Shown: piece after piece, positions 6,179 to 20,956 of the stretch
Position numbering within the stretch: the first letter of the stretch is position 1
Layout of the letters: every line of letters begins with the position of its first letter
Assembly (NCBI GenBank): GCA_028866435.1
Contig: JAGWIC010000014.1
Location: 1-44,590, forward strand
Direction of reading: 5' to 3'
Length of the DNA: 44,590 nucleotides
Source of the DNA: Lysobacteraceae bacterium
GTDB lineage: Bacteria; Pseudomonadota; Gammaproteobacteria; Xanthomonadales; Rhodanobacteraceae
Notes under the pieces: model-generated
Seen by the model: only the letters and a program-made list of their open reading frames with translations
The model's database searches: none
What the model was told of the DNA's origin: nothing
Made by a program: the position numbers and the translations under genes

Positions 6179-6210
6179 GTCGAACCGTGCCCGCCACGGT
6201 GTCGGCCTGC

Positions 6211-6241: not shown

Positions 6242-8419
6242 ATGACCAGCAAATTCCCCCGCACCGCCCTGTTCCTTGCCCTGATTTCGCTCGTGGCCGC
6301 GGCCCATGCCCAGGACGACAGCGCCCCGCCGTCGCAGGCCACGCCCCTGGCACCCGTGCACGTGCAGGCGGACGGCAACAAGGGCTACCAGGCCGACAGC
6401 AGCAGTCTCGGCGGCCTCGGCCATGCGCCCCTGCACGACACGCCGGCGGCGATCGTGGTGATCACCCGCGCGCAGATCGACGATCGCCAGCCGCGCAGCC
6501 TGAGCGAGCTGGCCCACGCCGATGCCGCGCTCGGCGACAACTACGCCGCCGTCGGCTACTACCAGGACATCTCCATCCGCGGCTTTGCGCTGGATCTGGC
6601 CAGCGGCTACCGCATGAACGACCTCAGCATCGCCGGCGAGCAATACCTCACGCTGGAGGACAAGCAGCAGGTGGAGATCCTCAAGGGCCTGGCCGGCCTG
6701 GAAGCTGGCGTCGTCGCCCCCGGCGGCCTGGTCAACTACGTCAGCAAGCGCCCGGCCGACGTGCATTCGGTCACCGTGGGCACCGATTCCCGTGGCTCGC
6801 GCTACGGCGCGCTCGACATCGGCGGCTGGCTGAGCCCGGATATCGGCGTGCGCGTGAACGCCGCCCACGAGGACATGCACTCCTATGTGCAGCACGACCC
6901 CGGCCGGCGCAACTTCATTTCGCTGGCCGCCGACTGGAAGATCGGCAGCAAGGCCACCCTGCGGCTGGACACCGATTACCAGACCAGCGGCCAGCGCTCG
7001 GTCTCCGGCTACCAGTTGCTCGGCGGCACGGTGATTCCGCCCAACCCCAGCCGCAACCGCATGCTCGGCTACGAGCCCTGGCAGCAGCCGGTGGGCATCC
7101 ATGCCAGCAACACCACGCTGCGCTTCGACTATGCATTCAACGACCAGTGGACGGCGCAGCTCTCGGCCGGGCACAGCCACGTGGTGATCGACGACAACGT
7201 CGCGTTCGCCTACGGCTGCGCCTACTCGCCCGCCTGCGCCAACAACGCGTCGCCCGGCTGGTTCTTCGCCCCCAACGGCGACTACGACGTGTACGACTAC
7301 CGCAGCCCCAACGACACCCGCCAGAACGACGAGGTCCGCGCCGTGCTCAAGGGCTCGTTCGATACCGGCATGCTCGGCCACGAGCTGAGCCTCGGCGCGA
7401 GCACGTTCCAGCGCACGCTCAACCAGCGCCCCTATGTCTACGACTACGTCGGCACCGCCAACATCGGCGAGGTGAACCCGCCCTACTTCGCACCGTCGCC
7501 CAACCAGCCGGGCACCCCCGCGCGCGCGCTGGACAGCTGGCAACGGTCGCTGTTCGGGCTCGATCGCGTGCACCTGGACCCGCACTGGCAGCTGCTCGCC
7601 GGCGGCCGCTACGTGCGCCTGGACGAAAGCGCATTCGACGACACCGGCGTGCTGCAGCGGCATACCGTGCAGGACCGGTTCCTGCCGCAGGCCGCCGTGA
7701 TGTGGCAGCCGACCGCGCCGCTGACCGCCTATGTCAGCTACAGCGAAAGCCTGTCGCTGGGCGGGCAGGCGCCGTGGTGGGCCACCAACGGCAGCGCCGT
7801 GCTGGCGCCGCTGCTGGCGCGCCAGGTCGAGGCCGGCGTGAAATACGCCTGGACGCCGGCACTGAACCTGCAGGTCGCGCTGTACCGCATCCGCCAGCCC
7901 TACCAGTTCGCCCAACCGGACAACTCCGTCGCCGGCTTCACCTTCGTCCAGCATGGCAACGAGGTCCACACCGGGCTCGAACTGAACGCCGCCGGCCAGG
8001 TCACCGGCAACCTGCAGCTGAGCGCCAGCGCCAACCTGATCCGGGCGCGGGCCGAGGACACCGGCACCCCGGCCTACGAAGGCCACCAGGTCGTCAACGT
8101 GCCCCGCTTGCGCACTTCGGTGTTCGCCGACTACCGGCTCCCCTTCGCGCAGCAGCTGAGCCTGCTCGGCGGCTGGCGCTACGCCAGCCCCAATACCGCC
8201 ACGCCCAACGGCCTGGTGCGGGTACCGGCCTATCACGTGTTCGATGCCGGCCTGAAATACGTCAGCCAATGGCAGGGCCATGCGCTCACCTTGCACCTGA
8301 ACATCGACAACCTGTTCAACCACCTCTACTGGCGCGACACCGGCAGTTCCGGCGGCGACAGCTACCTGTTCCCGGGCGCGCCGCGATTGGCGCGGCTGTC
8401 GCTGACCTACGAGCTCTGA
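6242..8419 (+). CDS. TonB-dependent outer-membrane receptor, probable thiamin uptake
   Basis: The 725-residue precursor has a signal peptide (residues 1-23, cleavage after AAAHA). A plug domain follows, with APVHVQADG as a possible TonB-box region, RGFALDLASGYRMND, and the strongly conserved VEILKGLAGLEAG...APGGLVNYVSKRP. A 22-strand beta barrel ends in a terminal aromatic-type strand (RLSLTYEL). By sequence it belongs to the siderophore-receptor-like branch. The TPP riboswitch in front and the PnuT-like permease immediately behind point to thiamin or a thiamin precursor as cargo. It would move the ligand from outside to periplasm using TonB energy. The stop is one base before the next ATG, so the pair is one operon, repressed when TPP is plentiful. 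The vitamin assignment rests on context, not on barrel sequence. Confidence 0.9.
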   Translation: MTSKFPRTALFLALISLVAAAHAQDDSAPPSQATPLAPVHVQADGNKGYQADSSSLGGLGHAPLHDTPAAIVVITRAQIDDRQPRSLSELAHADAALGDNYAAVGYYQDISIRGFALDLASGYRMNDLSIAGEQYLTLEDKQQVEILKGLAGLEAGVVAPGGLVNYVSKRPADVHSVTVGTDSRGSRYGALDIGGWLSPDIGVRVNAAHEDMHSYVQHDPGRRNFISLAADWKIGSKATLRLDTDYQTSGQRSVSGYQLLGGTVIPPNPSRNRMLGYEPWQQPVGIHASNTTLRFDYAFNDQWTAQLSAGHSHVVIDDNVAFAYGCAYSPACANNASPGWFFAPNGDYDVYDYRSPNDTRQNDEVRAVLKGSFDTGMLGHELSLGASTFQRTLNQRPYVYDYVGTANIGEVNPPYFAPSPNQPGTPARALDSWQRSLFGLDRVHLDPHWQLLAGGRYVRLDESAFDDTGVLQRHTVQDRFLPQAAVMWQPTAPLTAYVSYSESLSLGGQAPWWATNGSAVLAPLLARQVEAGVKYAWTPALNLQVALYRIRQPYQFAQPDNSVAGFTFVQHGNEVHTGLELNAAGQVTGNLQLSASANLIRARAEDTGTPAYEGHQVVNVPRLRTSVFADYRLPFAQQLSLLGGWRYASPNTATPNGLVRVPAYHVFDAGLKYVSQWQGHALTLHLNIDNLFNHLYWRDTGSSGGDSYLFPGAPRLARLSLTYEL

Positions 8420-8420
8420 C

Positions 8421-9008
8421 ATGACCGCGATCGAACTCATCGGTGCCCTGATCAGCGCCTGGGCCGTATGGCTCACCGCCCGGCGCCGGCCGTGGTGCTG
8501 GCCGATCGGCCTGCTGTCGGTGGTGCTGTACGGCGTGATCTTCGTCGAGGCGAAGCTCTACTCCGACGCCCTGCTGCAGGTGGCGTTCGCCGGCCTGATC
8601 GTCTACGGCTGGCGGCGCTGGCTGCAGAACCTCGGCGATGACGGCCGCGTCCAGGTGGCCGCCCTGCCGCGCGGGGAGGCGCTCGGCCACGTCCTGCTCG
8701 GTGTGCTCGGCGCGCTGGCGCTGGGCTATGCGATGCACCGCTGGACCGACGCCGCGCTGCCCTGGCTGGACGCCGCGCTGACCGCCTTCAGCCTGGTCGC
8801 GCAGTGGTGGCAGGGCCGCCGGCACATCGCCGCGTGGTGGCTGTGGATCATCGTCGACACGATCTATGTCGGCGAGTACGTCTACAAGCACCTGCTGATC
8901 ACCGCGGTGCTGTACGCCGGCTTCATCGTGCTGGCCGCGGTCGGGCTGCGGGCGTGGCGGAAAGTGGCGGTGCAGGACGCAGGGGCGGCGCCGGCCTCCG
9001 TCGCCTGA
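8421..9008 (+). CDS. pnuT: PnuC-family vitamin permease, PnuT-like thiamin transporter
   Basis: The product is a 195-residue inner-membrane protein of the PnuC/SWEET-like family. It has the typical start (TAIELIGALISAWAVWLTAR), a tryptophan-rich core (RRPWCWPIGLLSVVLYG and AWWLWIIVDTIYVGEYVYK) and about seven helices. PnuC proteins carry nicotinamide riboside, whereas PnuT proteins under TPP riboswitches carry thiamin. The ligand is trapped after phosphorylation in the cytoplasm. The ATG lies one base after the receptor stop, so translation is likely coupled. No thiamin pyrophosphokinase gene follows, unlike in some known pnuT operons. The nearest kinase is the APH-fold gene upstream. A C-terminal Ala-rich tail is present. 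Assignment as PnuT rather than PnuC depends on the riboswitch. Confidence 0.87.
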   Translation: MTAIELIGALISAWAVWLTARRRPWCWPIGLLSVVLYGVIFVEAKLYSDALLQVAFAGLIVYGWRRWLQNLGDDGRVQVAALPRGEALGHVLLGVLGALALGYAMHRWTDAALPWLDAALTAFSLVAQWWQGRRHIAAWWLWIIVDTIYVGEYVYKHLLITAVLYAGFIVLAAVGLRAWRKVAVQDAGAAPASVA

Positions 9009-9134
9009 AGCCGCCGACGGCCGGCGACCAGGTGGTACCCGTCGGGCCTTCCGGCACCCATGCATGAACGGGACGGCGGGCAACGGCAGCGGCGGCCTTT
9101 CAATCGCGCGGGTTTGGCGCAAAATGGAACGGCC

Positions 9135-9767
9135 ATGAAAACCTCCATGACCGGCACATCCCTCCTGGCGACCGTCCTGTTCCTGCTCGCGGCGACGACG
9201 GCGGCCGGCGCACAGGACATCTACAAGTGCAACCTGGGTGGCGAGCCCGCCTACATGGATCATCCCTGCCCCGGCGGCAAGGGCGTGCTGCTGCACCGGG
9301 CCGACGATACCGAGATCATCGACCAGTTCCTGCGGCTGGGGCAGCAGGACAAGGCCAAGGCCTACGCCGACTCGCTGCGCCTGGACGCCCTGTACGAAGA
9401 ACGGCTGGCCGCCTACCGGCAGGGCCAGCAGGAAAAGGCACAGCGCCAGGCCGACGAGGCCGTGGCCGCCGAGCAGCGCGAGCGGCAGGCCAGGCAGCAG
9501 GCGCTGGTCGATCAGCTGGCCAACAGCAACCAGCTGCAGGCGGAGAACAATGCGCTGCGCCGGCAGAACGCGCAGTACCAGCAGCAACTGAGCGCACCGG
9601 TCGAAAACTATGCACCGGCTTACTGGGGCACGGCGCCACCCTACCTGGGCCGACCGGACGAGCATCATCGCCGCGACCACGACGGCGACCACTGGCATCG
9701 CCCCGCGCCGCAGGAACCCGTGTTCCACCCGTGCAAGCAACTGGCCGGTGGCCGGGTGCAGTGCTGA
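9135..9767 (+). CDS. Secreted DUF4124-type protein with coiled coil
   Basis: The product has 210 residues, with a signal peptide (MKTSMTGTSLLATVLF..., cleavage near AGAQ at about residue 26). A short DUF4124-like module follows, in which IYKCNLGGEPAYMDHPCPG resembles the 'YKC...G...Y.D.PC' pattern of this periplasmic domain. Residues 60-150 are a Gln/Ala/Glu-rich coiled coil, and the tail is His/Asp-rich (EHHRRDHDGDHWHRP) with a final cysteine pair. Its function is unknown; in Xanthomonadales such proteins are common and uncharacterised. The start is the ATG at 9135, which gives a clean signal peptide; the longer frame to 9060 would bury it. It is convergent with the M19 dipeptidase gene. The His-rich tail could bind metal, but this is a guess. 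Confidence 0.82.
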   Translation: MKTSMTGTSLLATVLFLLAATTAAGAQDIYKCNLGGEPAYMDHPCPGGKGVLLHRADDTEIIDQFLRLGQQDKAKAYADSLRLDALYEERLAAYRQGQQEKAQRQADEAVAAEQRERQARQQALVDQLANSNQLQAENNALRRQNAQYQQQLSAPVENYAPAYWGTAPPYLGRPDEHHRRDHDGDHWHRPAPQEPVFHPCKQLAGGRVQC

Positions 9768-9829: not shown

Positions 9830-11158
9830 TCAGGCGTTGCCGTTGGCCGCGCCAGGCGCCAGCGATTCGAGCGTCGCCGATGACGGCGGCTCATCGGCCT
9901 GCAGCCGCCCGGCCACCGCCGCCGCTTCGCGCATCACCCGCAGCAGGTTGCCGCCGGCCAGCCGGGCCAGGTCCTCGTCGCTCCATCCGCGCCGCGCGAG
10001 CTCCATCAGCAGGGCCGGATAGGTGCCGACATGCTCCAGGCCCTGCGGCGTATCGGGGATGCCGTCGAAATCCGAGCCGATGCCGACGCAGTCGACTCCC
10101 GCCACCTTGCGCAGGTGCTCGATGTGGTCGGCCACCATCGCCAGGGTGACGACCGGCCCGGGGTGTTCGCGATCCCAGTCGGCCAGCGCCGCCTTCGCCC
10201 GTTCGGGCTGGCCGATGTAGAGGCCGGCATAGGGCGGCGCGTTGAGCCGCGTGCGCTCGGCCGCCCGATCCGACTCCCAGCGATGGCGCCCGGCCGAGAC
10301 ATAGGCCGTCGCGAAGGTGGCCATGACGATGCCGCGATGGCGCGCCACCCGCTCCAGCACGTCGTCGGGCACGTCGCGCGGATGATCGTTCAGCGCACGC
10401 GCGTTGGAGTGGGAAAACATCACCGGCGCCAGCGAGGTATCCAGCGCGTCGCGCATGGTGTCGGGCGATACGTGGCTGAGGTCGACCAGCATGCCGAGGC
10501 GGTTCATCTCGCGCACCACGGCGCGGCCGAACGGGGTCAGCCCATGGTGCCTGGGCGTATCCGTGGCCGAATCGGCCCAGTTGTTGCCGAGCGTGTGCGT
10601 CAGCGTCATGTAGCGCGCACCGAGCGCGTGCATTTGCCGCAGCACGGGCAGCGAGTCGTCGATCTGGTGGCCGCCTTCGATGCCGATCAGCGAGGCGATG
10701 CGGCCGGCTGCGTGCGCCTGCAGGATGTCGTCCGCCGAATAGGCCAGCTGCAGGTCCCGCGGGTAGCGGGCCACCATGTCGCGCACGATGTCGATCTGTT
10801 CCAGCGTCATCTTCACCGCCGCCGCGCCGCCCACCGTGGGCGGTATCCACACCGACCAGAACTGTCCGCCGACCCGGCCCTCGCGCAGGCGCGGGATGTC
10901 GGTCATCAGCGCCGCCGGCATCCGCCCGTCCTCCGCCTTCAGCGGCAGCTCCGCGGTGCTGCGGGCCAGATCCACGCCGGCGGCGCTGCCGAAGCGTTGC
11001 CGGATCCGCCAGGCGAGGTCGTTGTGGCCATCGATCAGCGGCGTGCGCTGCAGCACGCGGTCGATGCGCGCGGCGAGGTCCGCGTCAGGGGATGGCGCCG
11101 CGCCCGGCGCGGCCGTGGCGGAGGCGGGAATCGGGGCGTCGCTGGGGTTGCCGCTCAT
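9830..11158 (-). CDS. M19 (renal-type) zinc dipeptidase
   Basis: The 442-residue protein shows all metal ligands of membrane-dipeptidase family M19: H45 and D47 (LIDGHNDLAW), bridging E161 (GIEGGH), H229 (VDLSHV) and H250 (FSHSN), plus D363 (GIGSDFDG). These enzymes split dipeptides and tolerate D-residues at the C-terminal position, which suits a route for D-amino-acid-containing dipeptides. No signal peptide or lipobox is visible; the N-terminus is an Ala/Pro-rich leader. The enzyme is therefore predicted to be cytoplasmic, where imported dipeptides would arrive. It is the last gene of the minus-strand peptide cluster, 70 bases after the preceding hydrolase stop. The start is the ATG at 11158; an internal start near residue 86 would remove H45, so it is unlikely. 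Confidence 0.92.
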   Translation of the reverse strand: MSGNPSDAPIPASATAAPGAAPSPDADLAARIDRVLQRTPLIDGHNDLAWRIRQRFGSAAGVDLARSTAELPLKAEDGRMPAALMTDIPRLREGRVGGQFWSVWIPPTVGGAAAVKMTLEQIDIVRDMVARYPRDLQLAYSADDILQAHAAGRIASLIGIEGGHQIDDSLPVLRQMHALGARYMTLTHTLGNNWADSATDTPRHHGLTPFGRAVVREMNRLGMLVDLSHVSPDTMRDALDTSLAPVMFSHSNARALNDHPRDVPDDVLERVARHRGIVMATFATAYVSAGRHRWESDRAAERTRLNAPPYAGLYIGQPERAKAALADWDREHPGPVVTLAMVADHIEHLRKVAGVDCVGIGSDFDGIPDTPQGLEHVGTYPALLMELARRGWSDEDLARLAGGNLLRVMREAAAVAGRLQADEPPSSATLESLAPGAANGNA

Positions 11159-11228
11159 GGGATGCGCTCAAAGCCGCGGTCGGTTTCGGTGACGGTTGAT
11201 GGAACGGCGCCCGCAAAGACACGGCGCC

Positions 11229-12854
11229 CTACCTGCCGGCCTGCACCGGCGTGAAGCGCAGGTCCTGGTAGTCCCAGCTGAAGTCGGCCAGCGGCGATAC
11301 CGCCTTCATCGTCATCCGGTCGATGCCGCCGTCCGGCTTGAGCGCGAAGGTGACGTAGGCGTCCTCCACGTCGGGCATCGCCCAGCGCGTGCGGAACGTA
11401 TCGTACTGCACGTGCTGCAGCGTGCCGTGCAGGCCGGGCGAACGGTCGAAGCTGATCTGCAGCGTGCCGTGGCGGTTCCGGCGGATCGTGGCGGTGCCGT
11501 ACCACGGGTCCCGGTAGACGCCGGCATAGGCGGACAACGGCAGCGACGGTCCGCGTTGCGGATGCATCGCCGCGCCGTGGCGGTGCATGGCGGCGATGGC
11601 GCCGGCCTGGATGCCGTCGAACATGTGCTTGTAGCCGCCGATCCAGTCCGGCGAAGGCAGGCCCAGCACGGTGTCGAGCAGGTGTTCGCGCATCGCGAAC
11701 AAGGCGCCCACGTCCTCCGAATTGAGCATGATCGCGAAGGCCGCGTGCTTTTCCGGAACGATCACCACCGCCGATATGCCGCCCAGCACGCCACCGAGAT
11801 GGGTGATGATCTTGTGGCCGCGGTAATCCTGCACCTCGAAGCCCAGCGCGTAGGCGTCGAACTGCGGCTGCGCCAGCGCGACCTGCGCCGGCAACGGCGA
11901 AATCGGAATCAGCGTCTGCGGCGTCCACAGCATCTTCGCGGACGCCGCGCTGAAGATGCGCCGGCCGTCGCCCAGCCGCCCGCGATCCAGCTGCAGCCGC
12001 AACCAGCGCCCCATGTCCGCCGCGCTCACCTGCAACGCGCCGGCCGGCGCGAACACGCTGCCCGTCATCACCGTGGTGAGCACCGCCTGCGGACCGACGC
12101 CGCGCACCGCCGTGGTGTTCCTGGCGTGCAACGACACCTGGTCGGCGACGCGCGCGTCGATGCTGGTCCGGGTGTCGCGCATCCGCAGCGGATCGAGGAT
12201 GTGCTGCTGCACGAAATCCTCCCAGCGCTGGCCGGAGACGGCCTCGACCAGTTGCCCGGCCACGACGTAGAGCACATTGTCGTAATCGTAGTCGGCGCGG
12301 AAGGAATGCGCCGGCTTCAGGTAGCGGATGGCGTGCACCAGTTCCGCACGCGTGCGGTCGGTGGTGGGAAACATCAGCAGGTCGCCCTCTCCCAGCCCCA
12401 GCCCGCTGCGGTGCACCAGCAGGTCGGTGACGGTCATCTCGCTGGACGCGTAGGCGTCGTACATGCGGAAGCCGGGCAGCTTGTCGACCACCCGGTCGTC
12501 CCAGTGCAGCTTGCCCTCGTCCACCAGGATCGCCAGCGCGGCCGTCGTGAAAGCCTTGGTGTTGGAGCCGATCGGGAAGATCGTGTGGGCATCCACCTTC
12601 GCCGCACCGCCCAGCCGGCGCACGCCGTAGCCGTGCGTGCTGACGACGCCGCCTTCGACCGTTGTCACCGCCATGCCGGGCGGGCCGAAGACCCGCATGA
12701 CCTGATGCGCGTAGGCATCGAGCGGGGACGCCGATGCGACCGGCGCCGCGGCGGCGGCCGACCCGCCGCAGCCGGCCAGCAGCACCAGCATGCCGGCGAC
12801 GCGGCCGCATGCGGCGATGCGCGCGGCGACCTCTTTGCGGATTCGACGGATCAT
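11229..12854 (-). CDS. Serine hydrolase of the beta-lactamase/PBP fold, lipoprotein, DUF3471-like tail
   Basis: The 541-residue precursor has a lipobox (LLAGC, C29), so it is a lipid-anchored periplasmic protein. The catalytic domain (about 45-400) carries S97-N-T-K100, Y191-D-N193 and H352-L-G354, equivalent to the SxxK, YxN and KTG motifs of class C beta-lactamases, DD-peptidases and D-aminopeptidases. A beta-rich C-terminal domain (about 435-541, including YAGVYRDPWYG) resembles DUF3471. The presence of H-x-G and the setting favour a peptidase or esterase rather than an antibiotic-resistance enzyme. The start at 12854 is fixed by CAGGGGAG eight bases upstream. That site is also complementary to the C-rich loops of the candidate small RNA at 42408-42530. 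It sits between the RpiR regulator and the dipeptidase in the peptide cluster. Confidence 0.88.
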   Translation of the reverse strand: MIRRIRKEVAARIAACGRVAGMLVLLAGCGGSAAAAAPVASASPLDAYAHQVMRVFGPPGMAVTTVEGGVVSTHGYGVRRLGGAAKVDAHTIFPIGSNTKAFTTAALAILVDEGKLHWDDRVVDKLPGFRMYDAYASSEMTVTDLLVHRSGLGLGEGDLLMFPTTDRTRAELVHAIRYLKPAHSFRADYDYDNVLYVVAGQLVEAVSGQRWEDFVQQHILDPLRMRDTRTSIDARVADQVSLHARNTTAVRGVGPQAVLTTVMTGSVFAPAGALQVSAADMGRWLRLQLDRGRLGDGRRIFSAASAKMLWTPQTLIPISPLPAQVALAQPQFDAYALGFEVQDYRGHKIITHLGGVLGGISAVVIVPEKHAAFAIMLNSEDVGALFAMREHLLDTVLGLPSPDWIGGYKHMFDGIQAGAIAAMHRHGAAMHPQRGPSLPLSAYAGVYRDPWYGTATIRRNRHGTLQISFDRSPGLHGTLQHVQYDTFRTRWAMPDVEDAYVTFALKPDGGIDRMTMKAVSPLADFSWDYQDLRFTPVQAGR

Positions 12855-12862
12855 CGGCGACG

Positions 12863-12870
12863 CTCCCCTG
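12863..12870 (-). promoter_or_regulatory. Ribosome binding site CAGGGGAG, possible small-RNA target
   Basis: Read on the minus strand, the eight bases CAGGGGAG lie eight bases before the ATG at 12854, so they set the start. They are the exact complement of CUCCCCUG, present in two loops of the candidate small RNA at 42408-42530. Pairing there would block ribosome access. The complementarity is seen; regulation is inferred. Confidence 0.5.
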
Positions 12871-12921
12871 TTTCCATGGACGCTGCCGCCCCGGCCGGGC
12901 GGCACCGCCGTGACGAATGGT

Positions 12922-13836
12922 TCAGCCCTTCGGCCGGGCGCGCGGCTTGCCGCGGGCGGGCTTGCCGGCGCCTTGCGGCCTGGGCTTCTTCTCCAGCACC
13001 GGCGCCTCGACGTAACCCACCAGCCGCTGGCGCAGCTGGGTGATGTCGCCGATGCGGTCGAACATGTCGCCCTGCTCGCGGGTGACCGCGCCGATCAGCA
13101 GGCTCAGCAGGCTGGTGGCGGCGGTGAAGTTGTGCCACGGCCGCTCCATCTCGGCCGGCAGCATCAGCACGTGGCTGGTGAGCTGGCGCGCCCAGTAGCA
13201 CTGGCTGTCGGTGATGATCGCCAGCGGGATGCCGCGCGCGACCGCTTCCTCGGCGAGGATGCGGAAATGCCGCGAATAGCGCCGGAAGTCGATCAGCAGC
13301 ACGCAGCTTTTCTCGGTGGAGTCCAGCAGCATGTCGGTATAGGCGCCATCCAGCCCTTCGTCGAACACGGTGCGCGGCTTGACGTGCTGCATCAGGCTGG
13401 CGAAACCCAGGCCGAGGAAGCGGCCCTGGTGAAAGCTGGCGACCGAGACCCGGTCGGCGTCCACCAGCAGCCTGACCACGGACTTCCACTCCGCCGAACG
13501 GGTCAGTGCGTGCGCGATCGTCACGCCGCGTATCTCCGCCTGCAGGCTTTCCGACATCGTCGCCGGGTCGCCGGCCTGGTCCGGGTTCTTGTACAGCTGC
13601 AGCCACGGCGCATCGCCGCGCAGCTCCTCTTTCAACTCGTTGAGCCCGGCGTAGCCGAGGTTGCGCAGGAAGCGGCCCACCGTCATCGCGCTGACGCCCA
13701 CGCGCTGGCCCAGCGACGCGGCGGTCTCGAACGGGATGGCGCCGGGGTTGTGCAGCAGGTAGGTGGCAATCTTCTGCTCGGAGGTGGTGAACGCGTCCCA
13801 GCCGCCCTTCAGCTTCTTCTGCAAGTTCTTGATCAT
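12922..13836 (-). CDS. MurR/RpiR-family transcriptional regulator
   Basis: The protein has 304 residues. Residues 1-77 form the RpiR-type helix-turn-helix: MIKNLQKKLKGGWDAFTTSE, then ETAASLGQRVGVSAMTVGRFLRNLGYAG. Residues about 115-250 form the SIS (sugar-isomerase) domain that senses phosphosugars or other small ligands (VSVASFHQGRFLG..., VLLIDFRRYSRHF, AIITDSQ). A very basic tail (KKPRPQGAGKPARGKPRARP) follows, which is not usual. The best-known relative MurR responds to MurNAc-6-phosphate, which fits a cell-wall-peptide setting, but the ligand cannot be read from sequence. The start is the ATG at 13836; upstream residues of the open frame are Pro/Arg-rich and would run into the transporter stop (10 bases away). 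It is the obvious local regulator of the 9830-20649 cluster. Confidence 0.9.
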   Translation of the reverse strand: MIKNLQKKLKGGWDAFTTSEQKIATYLLHNPGAIPFETAASLGQRVGVSAMTVGRFLRNLGYAGLNELKEELRGDAPWLQLYKNPDQAGDPATMSESLQAEIRGVTIAHALTRSAEWKSVVRLLVDADRVSVASFHQGRFLGLGFASLMQHVKPRTVFDEGLDGAYTDMLLDSTEKSCVLLIDFRRYSRHFRILAEEAVARGIPLAIITDSQCYWARQLTSHVLMLPAEMERPWHNFTAATSLLSLLIGAVTREQGDMFDRIGDITQLRQRLVGYVEAPVLEKKPRPQGAGKPARGKPRARPKG

Positions 13837-13846
13837 CGGCCTGCGC

Positions 13847-15172
13847 TCATCCGGCCGGCGCCGTGGCGGTGGCGCCGGACTGTCCATGTTGTCCCACCGT
13901 GCGGTGGCGACGGCTGAGCATATACAAAAGCACGGCGGACAGCCCCGAGACCGCGCCGATCAGCGCAAAGAACGCGCCGTGGTTCATCCGGCTCCACAAG
14001 GTGCCGAGCACGCCGGCCAGCAGGTTGCCGAAGAAGCCGGCGAAGAACCACGTCGCGATGCTGGTGGCGCGAAAACCTTCCGGCGCCATGCGCCCGAACA
14101 GGGCCAGCCCCACCGGCAGGATGTACAGCTCGCCGATGGTGAACACCACGAACCAGACGAACAGCCAGACCCAGCTGGCACGCGTGCCATGGGCTTCGTG
14201 CCAGGCCGCCACCAGGCCCAGGGCCAGGTACGACGCCGCTACGATCGTCGCGCCGAACGCCATCCGGGCCAGCAGCGGCGTGTCCACGCCACGCCTGGCC
14301 AGCCGCGACCAGTGCGCCACCAGCACCGGCGTGAAGGCGAACACCGCCAGCGAGTTGATCGACTGGAACCAGGTCATCGGTATCGACCAGCCGGATGCCA
14401 GCTGGCGGTCGATGCCGGTATCGGCCCACAGCGCGATGGTGTTGCCGTTCTGCTCGTAGGCGCCGCGAAAGATCACCACGATGGCGGCGATGCCGATCAG
14501 CAGGCCGAAGCGTTCGCGGGCGGCCCGGTCCATCGGCGGACGGGCGGCCCGCGCGGCGGCGCCGCGCGCCGGTTCGGCCGGCAGGTAGCGACGCCCGCCC
14601 AGGTAGATCACCAGCGACAGCAGCATGCCGAAGCCCGCCGCGGCAAACCCCCAGTGCCAGCCATAGGCCTCGCCTAGGGTGCCGCACACCAGCGGCGCCA
14701 GGAAGCCGCCGATATTGATGCCGACGTAGTAGATGTTGTACGCGCTCTTGCTGCGCGCGTCGCCGTCGCGGTAGAGCCCCTCGATCTGGCTGGCCAGGCT
14801 GGGCAGGAACAGGCCGTTGCCCAGCGCGATCATGCACAGCGCCGGATAGAACAACGCATCGGCAGACATCATGAAATGGCCGAGCGCCATCATCGACCCG
14901 CCGATCACCACCGCGCGCCCCTTGCCCAGCCAGCGGTCGGCCAGCATACCGCCGAACACCGGGGTGAAGTAGACGAAGGCCGCGTACGCGCCATAGACCA
15001 GCGAGGCGTACTGCTGGCCCATGTCCAGGTGCATGGTCATGTAATAGACCAGGATCGCGCGCATGCCGAAGAAGGAGAACATCTCCCACATTTCGGTCAG
15101 GAACAGGATGGTCAGGCCGCGGGGATGGCCGAACCAGTTTTTTCCGGCGGTTGGGGACGTTGCCAGGGACAT
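13847..15172 (-). CDS. POT/PTR-family proton-coupled peptide transporter with altered ExxER motif
   Basis: The product is a 441-residue, about 12-helix MFS protein of the proton-dependent oligopeptide transporter family. Supporting features are the first helix around TEMWEMFSFFGMRAILVYYM, the helix 2-3 region GGMLADRWLGKGRAVVIGG, and NIYYVGINIGGFLAPLVCGTLGE. The family imports di- and tripeptides with protons. The diagnostic ExxERFxxYG of helix 1 is here E27-M-W-E30-M31-F-S-F-F-G, so the conserved Arg is Met and the Tyr is Phe. This may change proton coupling or mark a subfamily. The start is the ATG at 15172, with GAGGAGG 12 bases upstream; a GTG at 15175 is equally spaced. It lies between the epimerase (31-base gap) and the RpiR regulator (10-base gap), so co-transcription is likely. 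Confidence 0.9.
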   Translation of the reverse strand: MSLATSPTAGKNWFGHPRGLTILFLTEMWEMFSFFGMRAILVYYMTMHLDMGQQYASLVYGAYAAFVYFTPVFGGMLADRWLGKGRAVVIGGSMMALGHFMMSADALFYPALCMIALGNGLFLPSLASQIEGLYRDGDARSKSAYNIYYVGINIGGFLAPLVCGTLGEAYGWHWGFAAAGFGMLLSLVIYLGGRRYLPAEPARGAAARAARPPMDRAARERFGLLIGIAAIVVIFRGAYEQNGNTIALWADTGIDRQLASGWSIPMTWFQSINSLAVFAFTPVLVAHWSRLARRGVDTPLLARMAFGATIVAASYLALGLVAAWHEAHGTRASWVWLFVWFVVFTIGELYILPVGLALFGRMAPEGFRATSIATWFFAGFFGNLLAGVLGTLWSRMNHGAFFALIGAVSGLSAVLLYMLSRRHRTVGQHGQSGATATAPAG

Positions 15173-15203
15173 CACGCGCACGAGCCTCCTCGCTGCCGGC
15201 ACA

Positions 15204-16229
15204 CTATGCCGCAACCGCCAGCGGACTGCCCCACAGCGCCTCGGGGCACCAGATGCTGCCGTCCTCGTAGACCACCGAGGGCGTGTAGTCCTCGATCAGG
15301 CTGAGCGGGCCATCGAGATCCACCACGTCGCACAGCTGGCCGACCACGAACGAGGGCGCCATCGCCAGCGATGAGCCACCCATGTTCCCGACCATCAAGC
15401 CGAAACCGAGCGTGCGCGCTTCCTCGGCGATCGCCAGCGCCTCGGTCAGCCCGCCGCACTTGTCCAGCTTGATGTTGATGACGTCGACCCGGCCGACCAT
15501 CCGGGCCAGGTCGCCGCGATCCTGCACGCTCTCGTCCGCCGCGATGCGGATCGGCCGCTCCAGGCCATCCAGCCACGCCTCGTTGCCGACCGGGAACGGC
15601 TGCTCGACCACGTCCACCCGGGCCTGCACCAGGGTCGGCAACAGCCGCGCAAACGACTCGCGGGTGAAGCCCTGGTTGGCATCGACCATCAGCCACACGT
15701 CCGGGCGCGCCTTGCGCACGGCCAGCACGCGCTCGGCATTGCGATCGTCGTCGGTGAGCTTGAGCTTGATCGCGCGAGCGCAGGTGTAGGCGAGCGCGCG
15801 ATCGGCCATCTCGGCCGGCTCGTCGGCGCCCACCGTGTAGGTGGTGAGCAGCGGCTTCGGCGCGGCCTGCCCGGCCATCTGCCAGACCGGCTTGCCGGCG
15901 CGCTTGGCGGCCAGATCCCACAGCGCGCAATCCAGCGCATTGCGCGCGCCGCCGGCAGGGAGCAGCTGCTGCAGCTCGGCGCGGCTGATGCCCGCCTCGA
16001 TCCGTGCGCGCAGCGCTTCGACCTGCGCCAGCATGGTGGCCGGCGTATCGTGGTGATAATAGACGCCTTGCGCCTCGCCGCGCCCGGTCAGGCCCTGCGC
16101 GTCGGTCAGTTCGACGATCAACGCATCGAATGCGGTGAAGGTGTAGCCGGTGATGTGGAACGGTGCATTGATCGCCCAGCGCGTGGGCGTCGCCTGCAGG
16201 CGCAGGCGCCCGCCATCATGGATGTTCAT
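15204..16229 (-). CDS. Dipeptide epimerase (L-Ala-D/L-Glu epimerase-like, enolase superfamily)
   Basis: The 341-residue protein has the enolase-superfamily capping domain (1-125) and barrel. The catalytic K155-x-K157 (AIKLKL), metal ligands D183 (MVDANQG), E209 (VVEQPFP) and D232 (AADES), and the second base lysine K254 with K257 (INIKLDKCGG) are all present. The D304-L-D306 pair matches the DxD motif that in dipeptide epimerases holds the substrate's amino terminus. It should therefore invert the C-terminal residue of a dipeptide such as L-Ala-D-Glu, turning cell-wall-type peptides into ordinary L,L-dipeptides. No signal peptide is present, so it acts in the cytoplasm. The exact dipeptide preference cannot be told. 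It is followed 31 bases later by the peptide transporter and then the regulator. Confidence 0.92.
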   Translation of the reverse strand: MNIHDGGRLRLQATPTRWAINAPFHITGYTFTAFDALIVELTDAQGLTGRGEAQGVYYHHDTPATMLAQVEALRARIEAGISRAELQQLLPAGGARNALDCALWDLAAKRAGKPVWQMAGQAAPKPLLTTYTVGADEPAEMADRALAYTCARAIKLKLTDDDRNAERVLAVRKARPDVWLMVDANQGFTRESFARLLPTLVQARVDVVEQPFPVGNEAWLDGLERPIRIAADESVQDRGDLARMVGRVDVINIKLDKCGGLTEALAIAEEARTLGFGLMVGNMGGSSLAMAPSFVVGQLCDVVDLDGPLSLIEDYTPSVVYEDGSIWCPEALWGSPLAVAA

Positions 16230-16275
16230 GCCAGCTTCTCTGTATGGGGCGTGCGGCGGCCGGGAACCGCCGCAC

Positions 16276-16285
16276 GGGGGGGGGG
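16276..16285 (+). repeat. Homopolymer tract of ten G
   Basis: Ten consecutive G (C on the transcribed strand) lie just after the stop of the membrane serine hydrolase gene (16287-16289) and 46 bases before the epimerase start. Length changes would not alter either reading frame but would change the intercistronic spacer. It could also be a sequencing weak spot. Confidence 0.9.
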
Positions 16286-16286
16286 A

Positions 16287-18311
16287 TCAATAGCGGACGT
16301 TGAAGCTGACCATGCCGAACGCGACGATCAGCCAGCCCAGATAGATCGTCGCCAGCGCCAGCAGGGTTTCGCCCGCCAGCACCCAGCGGCCGCGGCGCGG
16401 CCGCATCCAGCTGCGCACGGCATGCCGCACGACCGCCAGCACGCCGAGCAGGCCGACCACGCCAAGCACGTACTGCAGGTACAGCCACGGCGTCATCGCG
16501 CCATGCAGCAGGATCTCCTGGTCCGCCGCGGTGGCGATCAGCAGGCCCATCCAGCCGGCGAGGTCGACGAACAGCGCCAACACGCCCAGCCGCGACAGCA
16601 GCCGCGAACGACGCTGCGCGGCATCGAGCGCGAGCGGGCGGCGATAGTGGCGACGCACCAGCCAGCCGCCCAGCCAGACCAGCAGCGTGGCCAGCAGGAA
16701 CAGCAGCGACAGGCTGCCCCACAGCTCGATGCTGCCCAGCGTATGCAGGCCCTTCACCGCCAGGAAGACCATCACCGGCGGCTCGGCGTCGGTGACCCAG
16801 GAGCGGACGTCGCCATTGGCGTCCGCGACGAACTCCATGTGGTAGGGACCGTCCACCTGCTGGTATTTCAGCGGGCCCACTTCGCGCCAATGCATCGGCG
16901 CACCGGAGGGATGGATGAAGGCCGGCCCGAGGATGCTGCCGTCGGGCAGCGCCGTCACCTTGGTCTGGGTCAGCGCATACAGCATGCGCAGGGCGCTGTC
17001 GTTGCGGCGGCTGGCCAGGTACCAGCCCGCCACCCGTGCCGCATCGGCCTTGGCGGTGGCGGCGGTGGGCAGCTGTGGCGCCGCCAGCGGGAAATAGCGG
17101 TCGAGGAAGGCGTCGAAGATCGCCGCGCGGATCACCTCGGCGCCGCCCTCGTTGCCCGCGCTGTTGAACGACATGAAGACGCCGACGTCGGCGTCCAGCA
17201 GCAGATGCAGGTCGGTGTGGAAGTAGTCCGTATCGCCGGCATGGCCGATGATCCGCTGGCCGTTGCGGTTCTCCTGGTAGAAGCCCAGTGCATAGCCATT
17301 CATTCCCGGCGCGTCGTTGCGCTGCGGCGTGTGCATCAGAGCGACCGTGGCCGGCGCCAGGATCCGCCCGCCCTGGTAACTGCCGCCCTGCAGATGGGCG
17401 ATCATGAAATGGGCCATGTCCATCGCCGTCGTGCTCATCGCACCGGCCGGCGACGGGTCGACGATCTCGAACGGCTCGGCCTTGCCGTCGGATGCCTTCG
17501 CGTAGCTGGTGGCCATCATCGGCGCCATCGCCGCCGGCAGCGGTTGCCGGAAGGTCGAGTGCCGCATGTCCAGCGGCTCGAAGATGTGCTGCTCGATGTA
17601 GTCGTCGAAGTCCTGCCCGGACACCCGCTGCACGATATAGCCGGCCAGGCCGCAGCCGTAATTGGAGTACGCCACCAGCTGGCCCGGCGCGAAGATCCGC
17701 GCCGGCAGGTGGGTCTTCAGGTAGCCCTCCAGGCTGACCGGCTTGCCGTCGGTGGAAATCAGGTCGCGCGCGGTATCCTCGAACCCGGGGCTCTGCGTCA
17801 TCAGGTTGCGCAGGGTGATCGGCTTGCCGTGGAACGGCGGAATCCTGAAGTCCAGGTAGTCGTTGATGTCCTGGTCCAGGTTCAGCTTGCCCGCCTGCAC
17901 CAGCTGCATCACCGCGGTCCAGGTGAACAGCTTGGAGGTCGAGCCGATGCGGAACAGCGTCGTCTCGGGCGACGGCACCGTGCGCTTGTGCAGATCGTCG
18001 CGGCCATAGCCGCGGGCGAAGATGACCTGGCCGTCCTTGACCACCGAGATCACGCCGCCGGCAACGTCGCCACGCTGCAGGGCGAACGGCACCAGCCCGT
18101 CCAGGAAGGTCGACAGGTCCGCTGCGGTGAGCGCGGGCGGCTGGGCCCGCGTGTCCGTCGGCGCGGCGGTGGCGGCGGTGGCGGCGATGCCCGGGGCCGC
18201 GGCGGCGGACGCGGCCGCTGCCGGATTCGCCGGCGTCGGCACCTGTGCGGTGGCCAGGCCGGTGGCGCAGGTCGCGATCAGCGACAGCAGCAATTTCGTG
18301 GTGCGATTCAT
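16287..18311 (-). CDS. Membrane-anchored serine hydrolase of the beta-lactamase/PBP fold
   Basis: The 674-residue precursor has a signal peptide (1-22, cleavage near ATA) and an Ala/Pro-rich linker to about residue 60. A beta-lactamase-fold domain follows with S124-T-S-K127, Y215-S-N217 and H357-A-G359. After a beta-rich segment come four clear membrane helices (about 518-546, 570-596, 610-632 and 645-670). The catalytic domain therefore faces the periplasm, tethered to the inner membrane. The motifs allow DD-peptidase, D-aminopeptidase, endopeptidase or esterase chemistry. In this cluster, trimming of peptides imported by the neighbouring TonB receptor is the simplest reading. A CGGAGTAAG ribosome binding site precedes the ATG at 18311. 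The gap to the receptor stop is 34 bases. It is one of two such hydrolases in the locus, but it differs by the membrane tail. Confidence 0.9.
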   Translation of the reverse strand: MNRTTKLLLSLIATCATGLATAQVPTPANPAAAASAAAAPGIAATAATAAPTDTRAQPPALTAADLSTFLDGLVPFALQRGDVAGGVISVVKDGQVIFARGYGRDDLHKRTVPSPETTLFRIGSTSKLFTWTAVMQLVQAGKLNLDQDINDYLDFRIPPFHGKPITLRNLMTQSPGFEDTARDLISTDGKPVSLEGYLKTHLPARIFAPGQLVAYSNYGCGLAGYIVQRVSGQDFDDYIEQHIFEPLDMRHSTFRQPLPAAMAPMMATSYAKASDGKAEPFEIVDPSPAGAMSTTAMDMAHFMIAHLQGGSYQGGRILAPATVALMHTPQRNDAPGMNGYALGFYQENRNGQRIIGHAGDTDYFHTDLHLLLDADVGVFMSFNSAGNEGGAEVIRAAIFDAFLDRYFPLAAPQLPTAATAKADAARVAGWYLASRRNDSALRMLYALTQTKVTALPDGSILGPAFIHPSGAPMHWREVGPLKYQQVDGPYHMEFVADANGDVRSWVTDAEPPVMVFLAVKGLHTLGSIELWGSLSLLFLLATLLVWLGGWLVRRHYRRPLALDAAQRRSRLLSRLGVLALFVDLAGWMGLLIATAADQEILLHGAMTPWLYLQYVLGVVGLLGVLAVVRHAVRSWMRPRRGRWVLAGETLLALATIYLGWLIVAFGMVSFNVRY

Positions 18312-18345
18312 CAGGCGCTTACTCCGTTGGGCCAGCGTGGCATGC

Positions 18346-20649
18346 TCAGAAATCCAGACCGACGGTCACGCCCACGGTGCGCGGCGGCACGTAGGTCGCG
18401 GCGAACGGACTGCCCTGCGGGTCGATGGTTTCCGAGGCCAGCGAGGTGATGCCGCGCGCATTGGTGACGTTCTTGACGTACCCGCGGATCGTCCAGTTGC
18501 CGACATAGGTTCCGGCGTGCAGGTCGATGCCGTGGTAGCCCGGCACCGACATGCGCGGACCGGGCACCGACAGGAAATCGGTCATGCGCGCACCGACGTA
18601 GCGATAGCTTGCGCCGACAAAGCCCGACCAGCCGTCGCCCAGCGGGAAGTCGTAATCCGCGCCCAGGTTGGCATTCCACTTCGGCACCCACGGCAGGCGG
18701 TCGCCGTTGTAGCCATACAGCCCCGGCGGCGTGTCCGCCGTCAGCCTGGCATCGGTCCAGCTGGCGTTCGCCGACAGCACCAGGCCGCGCACGGGCTGGT
18801 ACTGCCAGTTCGCTTCCACGCCCTGGCTGCGGGCCTTGCCGCCGTTACTGAGGAAAACGAAACCGCCGGCGGCGGAGGTGAGCTGGATCTGGTTCCAGTC
18901 GATGTAGAACACGTCGGCGTCGAACACCATGTGCTGGTCGGGCGCGGTGGCCTTGAAGCCGAGTTCGTAACTGGTCAGCTTGTCGGGCGCGAAGCCCAAC
19001 GGCGCGCCCAGGCCCGGCGGCACGCCGACGTTGGCGCCGCCGGGGCGGAAGCCCGAGGCCACGCGCACATAGGCCATCAGGTTGTCGCTGAACTTGTAGC
19101 TGGGATTGACCAGGAACGTGGTGGGGGTGTCGCTGCTGCGGATGGTGAAGTCGCTGGGCCCGGTCAGCAGGCCGCTGCCGACCTGCGTGTACGAAGTGCT
19201 GTCGTGGGTGTGGCGCGCACCCACCAGCACGCTCAGCTGCGGGGTGGCGTGCCAGGTCACGTCGGCGTAGCCGGCCCATTCCTTGAAGATGCCCGGGCCG
19301 ATCGCCAGGTCCGCCAGGTTGGGCAAGGCGATCGGTGCGCCGGTCGTCGCGTCGAACACATTGACGGTCTGGTGGTTGCTGCTGTTCTCACGCGTGTAGA
19401 ACGCGCCCACGCGCCATGCCAGCGTCTGCTGCGCCGGCGACTGCAGCCGCAGTTCCTGGGTGAACTTGCCGAGGCTGACCGGCTGGCTGACCGAATAGCC
19501 GCCGTTGGCCAGGCCGAACAGCGGATTGAGCAGCGGGCCGTAGGCGGTCGTCACGTCGCCGTCCTGGCTGACCTTCTGCGAGCCGTAGCTGGTCGACGAG
19601 ACCAGCGTGGCCCAGCCGAGATCGGCGTTGACCGAGAGATCGTAGAGCCGATACTTGATCGCCAGCTGGCCCGTCCCGGCCGCCCGACTCTGCTTGTCGT
19701 AGCCGTAGATCGGCCGCAGGGTCGCCGGGTCCACTTCCACGCCGGTGTTGGCCAGGCCGTCGCCGCTGAGGCTCTGCGCCAGCGCCGAAAAGCGCACGTC
19801 GACCTTGTCGCTGGGCGTCCACCTCACTTGCGCACGGCCGCCGTCGACCTTGTCCTGGTTGACCTGCGACTTGCCGGTGAACACGTTGTCGATGTAGCCC
19901 GGGTCGTCACGATGGTAGGCGTTGACCCGCAGCGCCAGCTTGTCCTGCACCAACGGCAGGTTGAACATGGCCCGCCCGGTGAACCCGCTGCCGCCGCCGT
20001 CCACGCTGCTGAAGCCGGTGGTGACGCGACCGTACGCGCGGGTGGCGTCCGGCGGCGCGGTCACGAATTTCACCAGGCCGCCCAGCGAATTGGCGCCGTA
20101 GAGCGTGCCCTGCGGACCGCGCAGCACTTCGATGCGCTCGATGTCGGCCGGATCGATGTCCGGCGTCAGCAGGCTGCCCTCGGCGTACACCGTGCTCGAT
20201 CCGTACGGCGCGTCGTCGATATAGGTGCTGACGCTCGAATTGGCCTGGCTGCTGCCCGAGGTGATGCCGCGCAACACCAGCTGCGTCTGCCCCGCCGAAC
20301 TGGAGATCAGGTTGAGCCCGGGCACCTGGGTGGCGTAGTCGGCGAAGCTGTTCGCCCCCTCGCGCCGCAGGTCGTCGCCGGACACCACCGCTACCGCCAT
20401 GGGCACGTCCTGCAGGCGTTCCTTCCGCTTGTTCGCCGTCACCACCACCTTGGCCAGGTTGGTGGGGGTGACGCGGTTCGCGTTGGCGGACGCGCCTTGA
20501 TCGGCCTGCGCACCGGCGCCGCCGGCCACGGCCGCGCCGTCCGCTGCCGCCGCCATGGCCGGTACCGCGCCGCCGAATGGGCCGGCCAGGGCCACGGCAA
20601 TGGCCAGGCAGATGCCGCGACGAGCCTGTTGAACACGATGAAGTCCCAT
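18346..20649 (-). CDS. TonB-dependent outer-membrane receptor of the peptide cluster
   Basis: The 767-residue precursor has a long signal peptide (MGLHRVQQARRG..., cleavage near AMAAA, about residue 35). A TonB-box-like KVVVTANKRKERLQDVPMAV and a plug domain follow, with LRGITSGSSQ, IERIEVLRGPQGTLYGANSLGG and VKFVTAPPD. The beta barrel ends GVTVGLDF with a terminal Phe. The TANK(R)xE...Q-D-VP start is typical of the Caulobacter/sphingomonad/xanthomonad receptors for non-iron cargo such as carbohydrates or peptides. It heads the minus-strand peptide cluster and is followed 34 bases later by the membrane serine hydrolase. The start is the ATG at 20649 behind GGGGGAG. This site can pair for six bases with the C-rich loops of the candidate small RNA. 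Cargo is inferred from neighbours. Confidence 0.92.
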   Translation of the reverse strand: MGLHRVQQARRGICLAIAVALAGPFGGAVPAMAAAADGAAVAGGAGAQADQGASANANRVTPTNLAKVVVTANKRKERLQDVPMAVAVVSGDDLRREGANSFADYATQVPGLNLISSSAGQTQLVLRGITSGSSQANSSVSTYIDDAPYGSSTVYAEGSLLTPDIDPADIERIEVLRGPQGTLYGANSLGGLVKFVTAPPDATRAYGRVTTGFSSVDGGGSGFTGRAMFNLPLVQDKLALRVNAYHRDDPGYIDNVFTGKSQVNQDKVDGGRAQVRWTPSDKVDVRFSALAQSLSGDGLANTGVEVDPATLRPIYGYDKQSRAAGTGQLAIKYRLYDLSVNADLGWATLVSSTSYGSQKVSQDGDVTTAYGPLLNPLFGLANGGYSVSQPVSLGKFTQELRLQSPAQQTLAWRVGAFYTRENSSNHQTVNVFDATTGAPIALPNLADLAIGPGIFKEWAGYADVTWHATPQLSVLVGARHTHDSTSYTQVGSGLLTGPSDFTIRSSDTPTTFLVNPSYKFSDNLMAYVRVASGFRPGGANVGVPPGLGAPLGFAPDKLTSYELGFKATAPDQHMVFDADVFYIDWNQIQLTSAAGGFVFLSNGGKARSQGVEANWQYQPVRGLVLSANASWTDARLTADTPPGLYGYNGDRLPWVPKWNANLGADYDFPLGDGWSGFVGASYRYVGARMTDFLSVPGPRMSVPGYHGIDLHAGTYVGNWTIRGYVKNVTNARGITSLASETIDPQGSPFAATYVPPRTVGVTVGLDF

Positions 20650-20956
20650 GACGTTCTCCCCCGAATGAGTCAAGTGCACAGCCTGCCCTGCTATTGGTAC
20701 ACGTCTAACATTATCGTGTCAATGATATATTTCTATCATTCGAGGAAGAACGGGCGCGCGTGGTCGCATACCGGCGGGCCGGCCCGGCCCAACGGCAGTT
20801 GAACCGGTTTGGCCGGATACGAAGCCCGCCTTTGTGGTTTTTCATTGCGCCGCGCATCATGCCGCGGGACGCAGCCTGCCCAGGCGAAGAAACTGCCCGA
20901 TCGCGTTGCCGACTCCTGATCCGCCCCACCGATTTCCCTTCCCCCGGAATGCCCCG
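20650..20956. promoter_or_regulatory. Divergent control region between the peptide cluster and isochorismatase genes
   Basis: This 307-base gap contains an island of unusually AT-rich sequence (20695-20745). On the minus strand a TTGACA -35-like hexamer lies at 20716-20721, followed by a poor -10 candidate, TACCAAT, ending near 20692. Two inverted repeats overlap it: ACACG/CGTGT (20699-20703 with 20715-20719) and TGATA/TATCA (20723-20727 with 20734-20738). Such palindromes over a promoter are good operator candidates for the cluster's RpiR-type regulator. GGGGGAG at 20656-20662 (minus strand) is the receptor's ribosome binding site. The right-hand half shows nothing specific. Confidence 0.5.

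What the first reader, a model, noticed from the sequence alone, without database searches (positions are those of the whole stretch)
9830..20649. Seven-gene locus for capture, import, epimerisation and hydrolysis of D-amino-acid peptides
Seven consecutive minus-strand genes span every compartment. They are a TonB receptor, a periplasm-facing membrane serine hydrolase, a dipeptide epimerase with complete KxK, D-E-D, KxDK and DxD residues, a POT peptide transporter, a MurR/RpiR regulator, a lipoprotein serine hydrolase and a cytoplasmic M19 dipeptidase. Gaps are 10-85 bases. Known muropeptide recycling uses AmpG, MpaA and the like; none is here. The combination suggests a TonB-fed scavenging route for cell-wall-type or other D-residue dipeptides. 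The family assignments are firm; the joint pathway is inference.
Basis: partly seen in the sequence, partly recalled or inferred. Interest (0 to 1): 0.85.

Follow-up and report, generated by a model that had tools for sequence, protein, structure and literature searches.

The report
Dedicated operon for scavenging D-residue peptides
Seven neighbouring bacterial genes look like one switch-controlled kit for taking up unusual peptides containing mirror-image amino acids and turning them into food, with a transporter and an epimerase that both differ from their textbook relatives.

Summary
The seven genes are real, on one strand, 10-70 bases apart once internal ATG starts are used, and they behave as a unit. 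A tandem palindrome, TGNTA-N6-TANCA-N12-TGNTA-N6-TANCA, overlaps a TTGACA box before the TonB receptor. With that box it occurs once in this genome and, among 60 relatives, only in the nine carrying this epimerase type, always before the first cluster gene. TonB receptor, membrane S12 hydrolase, epimerase and POT recur together in Xanthomonadales, sphingomonads, Caulobacter and Duganella. RpiR, S12b, M19 and a DgcN-like gene come and go.

Three corrections. (1) The epimerase is a sister of DgcA and L-Ala-D/L-Glu epimerase but lacks their loop arginine, so murein L-Ala-D-Glu is an unlikely substrate; an AmpG-type permease exists elsewhere in the genome. (2) The POT is atypical: the ExxER arginine and TM4 lysine are lost in all 48 cluster POTs examined. 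(3) All 13 M19 relatives inspected at 50% identity or more look exported; the window copy lacks a signal peptide, and dgcN, which precedes M19 in L002 and G003, is missing here.

Best reading: a regulated outer-membrane-to-cytosol route for peptides with a non-acidic D-residue. New variant of a known kind; substrate unproven.

The parts
20694..20738 (-). Promoter/operator: TGATA-N6-TATCA (20738-20723), TTGACA (20722-20717), then TGTTA-N6-TACCA ending at 20695; proposed -10 TACCAA (20699-20694). Candidate RpiR binding site
   Evidence: sequence; comparison; one site in G000; 9 of 60 relatives, each before the first cluster gene
18346..20649 (-). TonB-dependent receptor (GTG start possible at 20679)
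   Evidence: PF07715, PF00593; below the cut-off of each of the 25 models shown
16287..18311 (-). S12a: S12-family serine hydrolase, signal-like N-terminus by eye, SxxK 124-127, YxN 215-217, about four C-terminal TM helices; predicted periplasm-facing
   Evidence: weak model with four C-terminal helices
15204..16229 (-). Dipeptide-epimerase/DgcA-like enolase-superfamily enzyme with loop ITGYTF in place of the Arg loop
13847..15172 (-). Atypical POT/PTR2 transporter (EMWEM in TM1, Leu for Lys in TM4); TTG start possible at 15214
12922..13836 (-). MurR/RpiR-type regulator (HTH_6 + SIS); ATG also at 13887
11229..12854 (-). S12b: S12-family serine hydrolase with DUF3471, lipobox LLAGC by eye; SxxK 114-117 and YxN 208-210 in the 558-aa ORF
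9830..11158 (-). M19 (membrane-dipeptidase family) enzyme without signal peptide; accessory, variable member
11159..11228 (-). Junction where L002 and L161 (G003) carry a dgcN-like gene between S12b and M19; no remnant detected here

Best explanation
One RpiR-controlled unit takes up peptides, or acylated peptide-like compounds, that contain D-residues. The TonB receptor brings them through the outer membrane. The membrane-anchored and lipoprotein S12 hydrolases cut them in the periplasm. The atypical POT carries a di- or tripeptide-sized product, with changed end-group recognition, into the cytosol. The epimerase inverts the C-terminal D-residue, probably a neutral one and not D-Glu, to the L form. 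Ordinary peptidases, and in this strain a relocated M19 enzyme, finish hydrolysis. In relatives with the DgcN-like acetyltransferase, free D-residues can probably enter the same epimerase as N-acetyl derivatives. Shown by calls: conserved gene order, operator-like element, loss of the Arg and Lys residues, M19 without signal. Inferred: co-transcription, operator binding by RpiR, substrates, direction and order of steps.
For: Family calls. S12a-EPI-POT directly adjacent in 34 of 59 full-flank loci, and TBDT + S12a + POT present in 32 of 59. Operator found once in the genome and matched to epimerase type in 60 relatives. 91 window-side epimerase rows split from 14 DgcA/AEE-side rows at SH-aLRT 99; loop Arg absent in all 91 by the motif test (residues shown in 27). 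Epimerase fold best matches 4gfi, 1jpd and other dipeptide epimerases. POT lacks the ExxER Arg and TM4 Lys in 48 of 48, while the genome's three other POT hits keep both; DtpC is a precedent for such a swap. DgcN-like gene in or near the cluster of 31 of 59 (38; 25, 51, 53). Five of ten genomes with the closest named epimerases have no DgcN over the cut-off, so the epimerase probably works without it there. Periplasmic S12 plus PTR2 transporter for a peptide toxin is known in Mlr.
Against: No substrate, activity or transcript is shown. S12 and TonB families are functionally broad. Nine of 59 full-flank loci carry the epimerase with none of TBDT, S12a, S12b, POT on its strand. NCBIfam places the epimerase nearest N-acetyl-D-Glu racemase (373.8 bits, cut-off 400), so an N-acyl amino acid could be the main substrate. 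Loss of the loop Arg is not unique: five rows on the DgcA/AEE side (L096-L100) also lack it. Leu for the TM4 Lys could also mean that the POT moves something other than peptides. Promoters in the gaps inside the cluster were not compared. L009 has the operator but no RpiR hit.
Confidence: 0.6

Rival explanations
1. N-acyl-D-amino-acid route: the locus imports peptides or N-acyl compounds, frees a D-amino acid, and the epimerase racemises its N-acetyl form as in DgcN-DgcA. The window strain lost DgcN and uses another acyl donor or imported N-acyl substrates.
For: DgcN-like gene in or near the cluster in 31 of 59 full-flank loci. An amidohydrolase component occurs in 17 of 80 loci by a home-made ORF caller (one representative scanned, Amidohydro_3). 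Best NCBIfam model is DgcA.
Against: No DgcN over cut-off in G000 (89% complete) or in five of ten genomes with the closest named epimerases. DgcA cut-off not met, loop Arg absent. The two cluster DgcN-like proteins scanned also fall below their model's cut-off (445.9 and 447.8 of 480).
Confidence: 0.25
2. Cell-wall (murein) peptide scavenging: L-Ala-D-Glu or similar fragments from other bacteria.
For: Best-known role of dipeptide epimerases (recalled; also stated in the passage); 4gfi and YcjG (1jpd) are the nearest solved structures.
Against: 1jpd Arg24 and Arg27 align with Gly28 and Phe31. A permease over the cut-off of TIGR00901 (AmpG-type by recall) lies elsewhere in the genome. No amidase, lysozyme or LD-peptidase family among the Pfam hits of the cluster genes.
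Confidence: 0.1
3. Detoxification: the S12 enzymes and importer destroy a D-residue peptide antibiotic and the rest reuses the pieces.
For: Both S12 proteins match alkaline D-peptidase 4y7p, and S12b also matches ClbP entries. Mlr shows degradation of a peptide toxin by a periplasmic serine hydrolase, a PTR2 transporter and other enzymes (that microcystin holds D-residues is recalled).
Against: A TonB importer would bring the antibiotic in. ClbP-type Ser/Thr at the third letter of YxN is not present; both have Asn (with PMC9889268 passages).
Confidence: 0.1

Closest known systems
DgcN-DgcA D-glutamate pathway (Yu et al. 2023; paper not held; role taken from passages of citing papers)
   Same: Epimerase is in a sister family; many relatives carry a DgcN-like gene in the cluster
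   Different: Epimerase and the two DgcN-like proteins scanned fall below the equivalog cut-offs; loop Arg lost; envelope and transport genes added. Of 13 comparison loci none had a POT hit
L-Ala-D/L-Glu epimerase YcjG (1jpd)
   Same: Fold, metal ligands, KxK, KxDK, DxD
   Different: Arg24 and Arg27 replaced by Gly28 and Phe31; PYPRYGE by GVYYHHD; VDANE by VDANQ; GCM by GNM
Microcystin mlr system (PMC12474180, passages read)
   Same: Periplasmic serine hydrolase, PTR2 transporter and cytosolic metallopeptidase working on one peptide
   Different: No MlrA (Rce1-like) or MlrC (M81) family among the cluster's Pfam hits; epimerase, TonB receptor and RpiR added; sequence relation not tested
Atypical POTs such as DtpC (PMC9309889, passages read)
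   Same: ExxER changed (DtpC QxxEY), with a shift in peptide-end recognition
   Different: Here M, L, Q, K, I or T follows xxE, and the TM4 Lys is Leu in 48 of 48
ClbP-type S12 membrane peptidases (PMC9889268, passages read)
   Same: Periplasmic S12 domain plus C-terminal membrane helices (S12a)
   Different: About four helices rather than three (weak model); consensus Asn in YxN rather than Ser/Thr

Membership tests
DgcA (NF042940) | Score over curated cut-off 400 | tested here: not met
   373.8 bits; canonical L115 490.9
DgcN-DgcA pair | DgcN partner in the genome | tested here: not met
   best DUF1611 hit 20.8 bits, cut-off 25; genome 89% complete, so absence is not certain
L-Ala-D/L-Glu epimerase (NF011708) | Score over cut-off 343 | tested here: not met
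   237.1 bits
L-Ala-D/L-Glu epimerase | Loop arginine for the Glu side chain (role recalled; presence tested) | tested here: not met
   Gly28 in the window
Dipeptide epimerase, enolase superfamily | KxK, D-E-D, KxDK, DxD | tested here: met
   invariant in 49 sequences
Dipeptide epimerase, enolase superfamily | Activity on dipeptides | not testable with these tools
   needs enzyme assay
POT/PTR2 | Family score | tested here: met
   PF00854 167.2 bits, cut-off 27; TIGR00924 279.7, cut-off 130.2
Canonical proton-coupled POT | ExxER in TM1 and Lys in TM4 | tested here: not met
   EMWEM and Leu; 0 of 48 cluster POTs have the Arg or the Lys
M19 membrane dipeptidase | Family score | tested here: met
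   373.5 bits, cut-off 26
M19 close relatives | N-terminal export signal (read by eye, no predictor run) | tested here: not met
   window lacks it; 13 of 13 relatives at 50% identity or more (L002, L042, L059, L064, L157-L165) appear to have it. Among weaker M19-like hits, L032 at 30% shows none
ClbP-type prodrug peptidase | Ser/Thr at position 188 (third letter of YxN) | tested here: not met
   YSN in S12a, YDN in S12b (rule)
MurR/RpiR regulator | HTH_6 plus SIS domain | tested here: met
   best NCBIfam model SapR 138.1 bits, cut-off 500
mlr microcystin cluster | MlrA and MlrC families alongside | tested here: not met
   not among the Pfam families of the seven genes

The most novel reading that the evidence does not exclude
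A previously unnamed, widely distributed nutrient pathway: a single-operator D-peptide utilisation operon whose POT has abandoned the canonical peptide-end contacts and whose epimerase forms its own specificity class for non-acidic D-residues, with DgcN as an optional side entrance through N-acetylation.
Probability: 0.45. Interest if true: 0.7.

Novelty: new variant of a known kind. Interest (0 to 1): 0.55.

Why it matters
It gives a testable whole-cell route, outer membrane to cytosol, for using D-residue peptides. It marks an epimerase class and an atypical POT class that travel together, which is a handle on both substrates. The operator gives a ready reporter for finding the inducer. My paper searches listed no title or abstract that describes this gene set. 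I saw listings (10 of 19 hits, 10 of 12, the full lists in the others) and opened only a few papers by passage; most subscription papers are not held, so this is not proof that none is in print.

Tried and rejected
Murein recycling as the role: set low after the loop-Arg loss and the AmpG-type permease elsewhere. DxD as proof of a dipeptide substrate: rejected, because DgcN-linked rows share it. S12a structure: model too poor (pLDDT 45.8), not searched. Promoter scan: 2 promoter-like sites against 0.8 expected and 4 terminator-like against 3.8, so uninformative by itself; the site it lists at 20739-20710 is not the one I propose. I did not compare the gaps inside the cluster for further promoters. 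Plasmid search: 599 plasmid records with an epimerase relative, all under 60% identity; not followed. Papers on active-site residues: PMC8142540 (passages) and PMC3605383 (term search without hits) gave nothing on the loop Arg, so its role stays recalled. PMC6090828 (passage) lists a dipeptide epimerase among genes shared by bean-pathogenic Xanthomonas; not followed.

One slip: window:21495-22809 was handed to Pfam out of frame (protein 9), so its '0 families' means nothing. Limits of the counts: the 80 loci were the best of 395 relatives found with the window epimerase, so they describe that set, not bacteria at large. They are not independent (L017 and L018 are identical; several genomes give two or three loci). 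Neighbours were counted only on the epimerase's strand, with bit-score thresholds chosen by me; the M19 count of 10 includes distant M19-like hits. The match of operator and epimerase type (9 of 9 against 0 of 51) lies within one genus and is not 60 independent tests. The shuffles keep base composition only. The ORF caller was home-made and missed genes. Rows left out of the tree by my choice: L001, L016, L018, L033, L040, L069, L102, L103-L111, L123. In one search I gave 45 loci, not all 80.
Full report
The observation. Internal ATG starts remove two apparent overlaps and give gaps of 10-70 bases. The genome is a 3.08 Mb assembly in 128 contigs, 89% complete. The loci with the closest epimerases are mostly from Rhodanobacter, Dyella and Fulvimonas, so the host is probably a Rhodanobacter or close kin (inference).

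Conservation. A scan of GTDB genomes with the epimerase gave 395 relatives, of which the best 80 were kept. I searched these loci with the seven proteins by tblastn. 59 of 80 have more than 9 kb on both sides of the epimerase. In those 59, on the epimerase's strand, S12a is present in 44, TBDT in 44, POT in 37, S12b in 27, RpiR in 27, M19 or an M19-like gene in 10, and on either strand a DgcN-like gene in 31. S12a, epimerase and POT are directly adjacent in 34 of 59. TBDT, S12a and POT are all present in 32 of 59, and with RpiR in 18. Nine of 59 have none of TBDT, S12a, S12b or POT; two of these nine, L074 and L076, have S12a-like and TBDT hits on the other strand. The full sets come from Xanthomonadales, sphingomonads, Caulobacter and Duganella among others, so the grouping is old (inference).

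Comparison loci. For contrast I fetched 13 loci around other DgcA/AEE relatives (L141-L153). None gave a POT hit at 1e-8 and none an S12a hit of 250 bits. All 13 have a DgcN-like gene. Three (L147-L149) have an RpiR-like gene at 35-36% identity. L146 has a TonB receptor (299 bits) and weaker S12 hits; its epimerase (row L118) branches at the base of the window side of the tree. L148 and L149 have weak TonB hits (159 and 196 bits), and L151 weak S12 hits. L151-L153 were not in the tree.

One operator-like element. The region before the TonB gene carries two copies of TGNTA-N6-TANCA either side of a TTGACA box (26 sequences aligned). A strict search of all sequence held finds the full tandem in the window and in 12 of the named loci (L002, L003, L004, L007, L008, L009, L010, L012, L014, L015, L025, L042), and in L154 and L155. 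L020, L021 and L027 have the upstream half with TTGAC only; others, such as L005 and L017, have diverged versions. Three base shuffles of all sequence gave no match. In the window's genome the pattern with its TTGAC box occurs once at up to one mismatch, and the reversed control pattern not at all. In 60 relatives it occurs in nine: G000, G001, G003, G007, G008, G020, G029, G032, G033. These are exactly the nine whose epimerase is at least 68% identical; the other 51 have none. Each site lies directly before the TonB receptor (eight) or S12a (G003). That the RpiR protein binds it is inference; L009 has the operator but no RpiR hit in its locus.

The epimerase. Catalytic residues are kept and the model is confident (pLDDT 94.9), with 4gfi and 1jpd as nearest structures. 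Where 1jpd, 4gfi and the rows L101 and L112-L117 have [SA]RG, the window has TGY; PYPRYGE of 1jpd becomes GVYYHHD. That this arginine (Arg24) holds the Glu side chain is recalled, not from a call. In a tree of 105 rows 91, the window among them, part from 14 at SH-aLRT 99 (quick method, midpoint root). None of the 91 has the arginine by the motif test; nine of the 14 do, and five (L096-L100) do not. The DgcA model scores the window at 373.8 against a cut-off of 400, and a canonical relative, L115, at 490.9. So it belongs to a sister class, probably for non-acidic residues (inference).

DgcN and M19. In L002 and in G003 (L161) a DgcN-like gene lies between S12b and M19. In L042 it also lies between them, followed by a second S12a-like gene. 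In the window the gap is 70 bases with no remnant, and the genome has no DUF1611 hit over the cut-off. Of ten genomes with the nearest named epimerases (L002-L010, L012), five have DgcN over the cut-off and five do not (their completeness is not given). All 13 M19 relatives at 50% identity or more that I inspected (L002, L042, L059, L064, L157-L165) show signal-like N-termini by eye; the window protein does not. Some weaker M19-like hits also look exported, but L032 (30%) does not. One deletion could explain the loss of both dgcN and the signal (inference). Close M19 relatives also occur in genomes without a window-type epimerase (G004, G006, G015, G017, G025), so M19 is not a core part.

The transporter. 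All 48 cluster POTs, window included, lack the ExxER arginine (M 26, L 8, Q 6, K 4, I 3, T 1) and have Leu for the TM4 lysine. The first Glu is Asn or Gln in 16. The TM7 and TM10 Glu are kept in 46 of 48 each. The three other POT hits in the genome have EFWERF or EMWERF and GNGLFKPN. In DtpC a QxxEY motif goes with lost contact to the peptide's C-terminus and a new side-chain selectivity (PMC9309889, passages). In PepTSo2 the ExxER arginine contacts the group that stands for the peptide's C-terminus (PMC4331665, passages). This points to specialised cargo (inference).

How it probably works. Receptor, periplasmic S12 cleavage, atypical import, epimerisation, hydrolysis. A precedent for a periplasmic serine hydrolase plus PTR2 transporter acting on one peptide is the mlr system (PMC12474180, passages; that its substrate holds D-residues is recalled). 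A TIGR00901 permease (AmpG-type by recall) is present elsewhere in the genome, so ordinary murein recycling need not depend on this locus.

Verdict. The unit and its operator-like element are well supported; the D-peptide role is the best available reading at about 0.6; the exact substrate is open.

Noticed in passing
window 4840-9008: A second TonB receptor (6242-8419), a PnuC-like transporter (8421-9008) and an APH-fold kinase (4840-6006) lie together and look like a vitamin uptake set (thiamine is a guess from memory). L004, L008, L010 and L014 carry relatives of all three in their loci.
   Followed up: partly
L017 and L018 (CP007444): The same 21,020-base stretch occurs twice, letter for letter, in the Dyella jiangningensis SBZ 3-12 record, one copy near its end: duplication or assembly artefact.
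   Followed up: partly
18 loci, e.g. L056 6898-7626: An XRE-cupin regulator gene is found in 18 of 80 loci, mostly Xanthomonadaceae and sphingomonads and often divergent from S12a; an amidohydrolase component is in 17 and a membrane protein without Pfam hit (YkvI-like by recall) in 11.
   Followed up: partly
L036, L054, L070, L072 (also L035, L049, L090, L091, whose flanks are short): A further epimerase subtype with loops ITGSTM, ITDYTM or ITGRTY sits near a DgcN-like gene with no POT hit seen; maybe another substrate class.
   Followed up: no
window 9060-9767: Small exported-looking protein (DUF4124-like by recall, no family search run) between the two gene sets; relatives of 46-61% identity lie in L008, L010, L012, L014 and L015.
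   Followed up: partly
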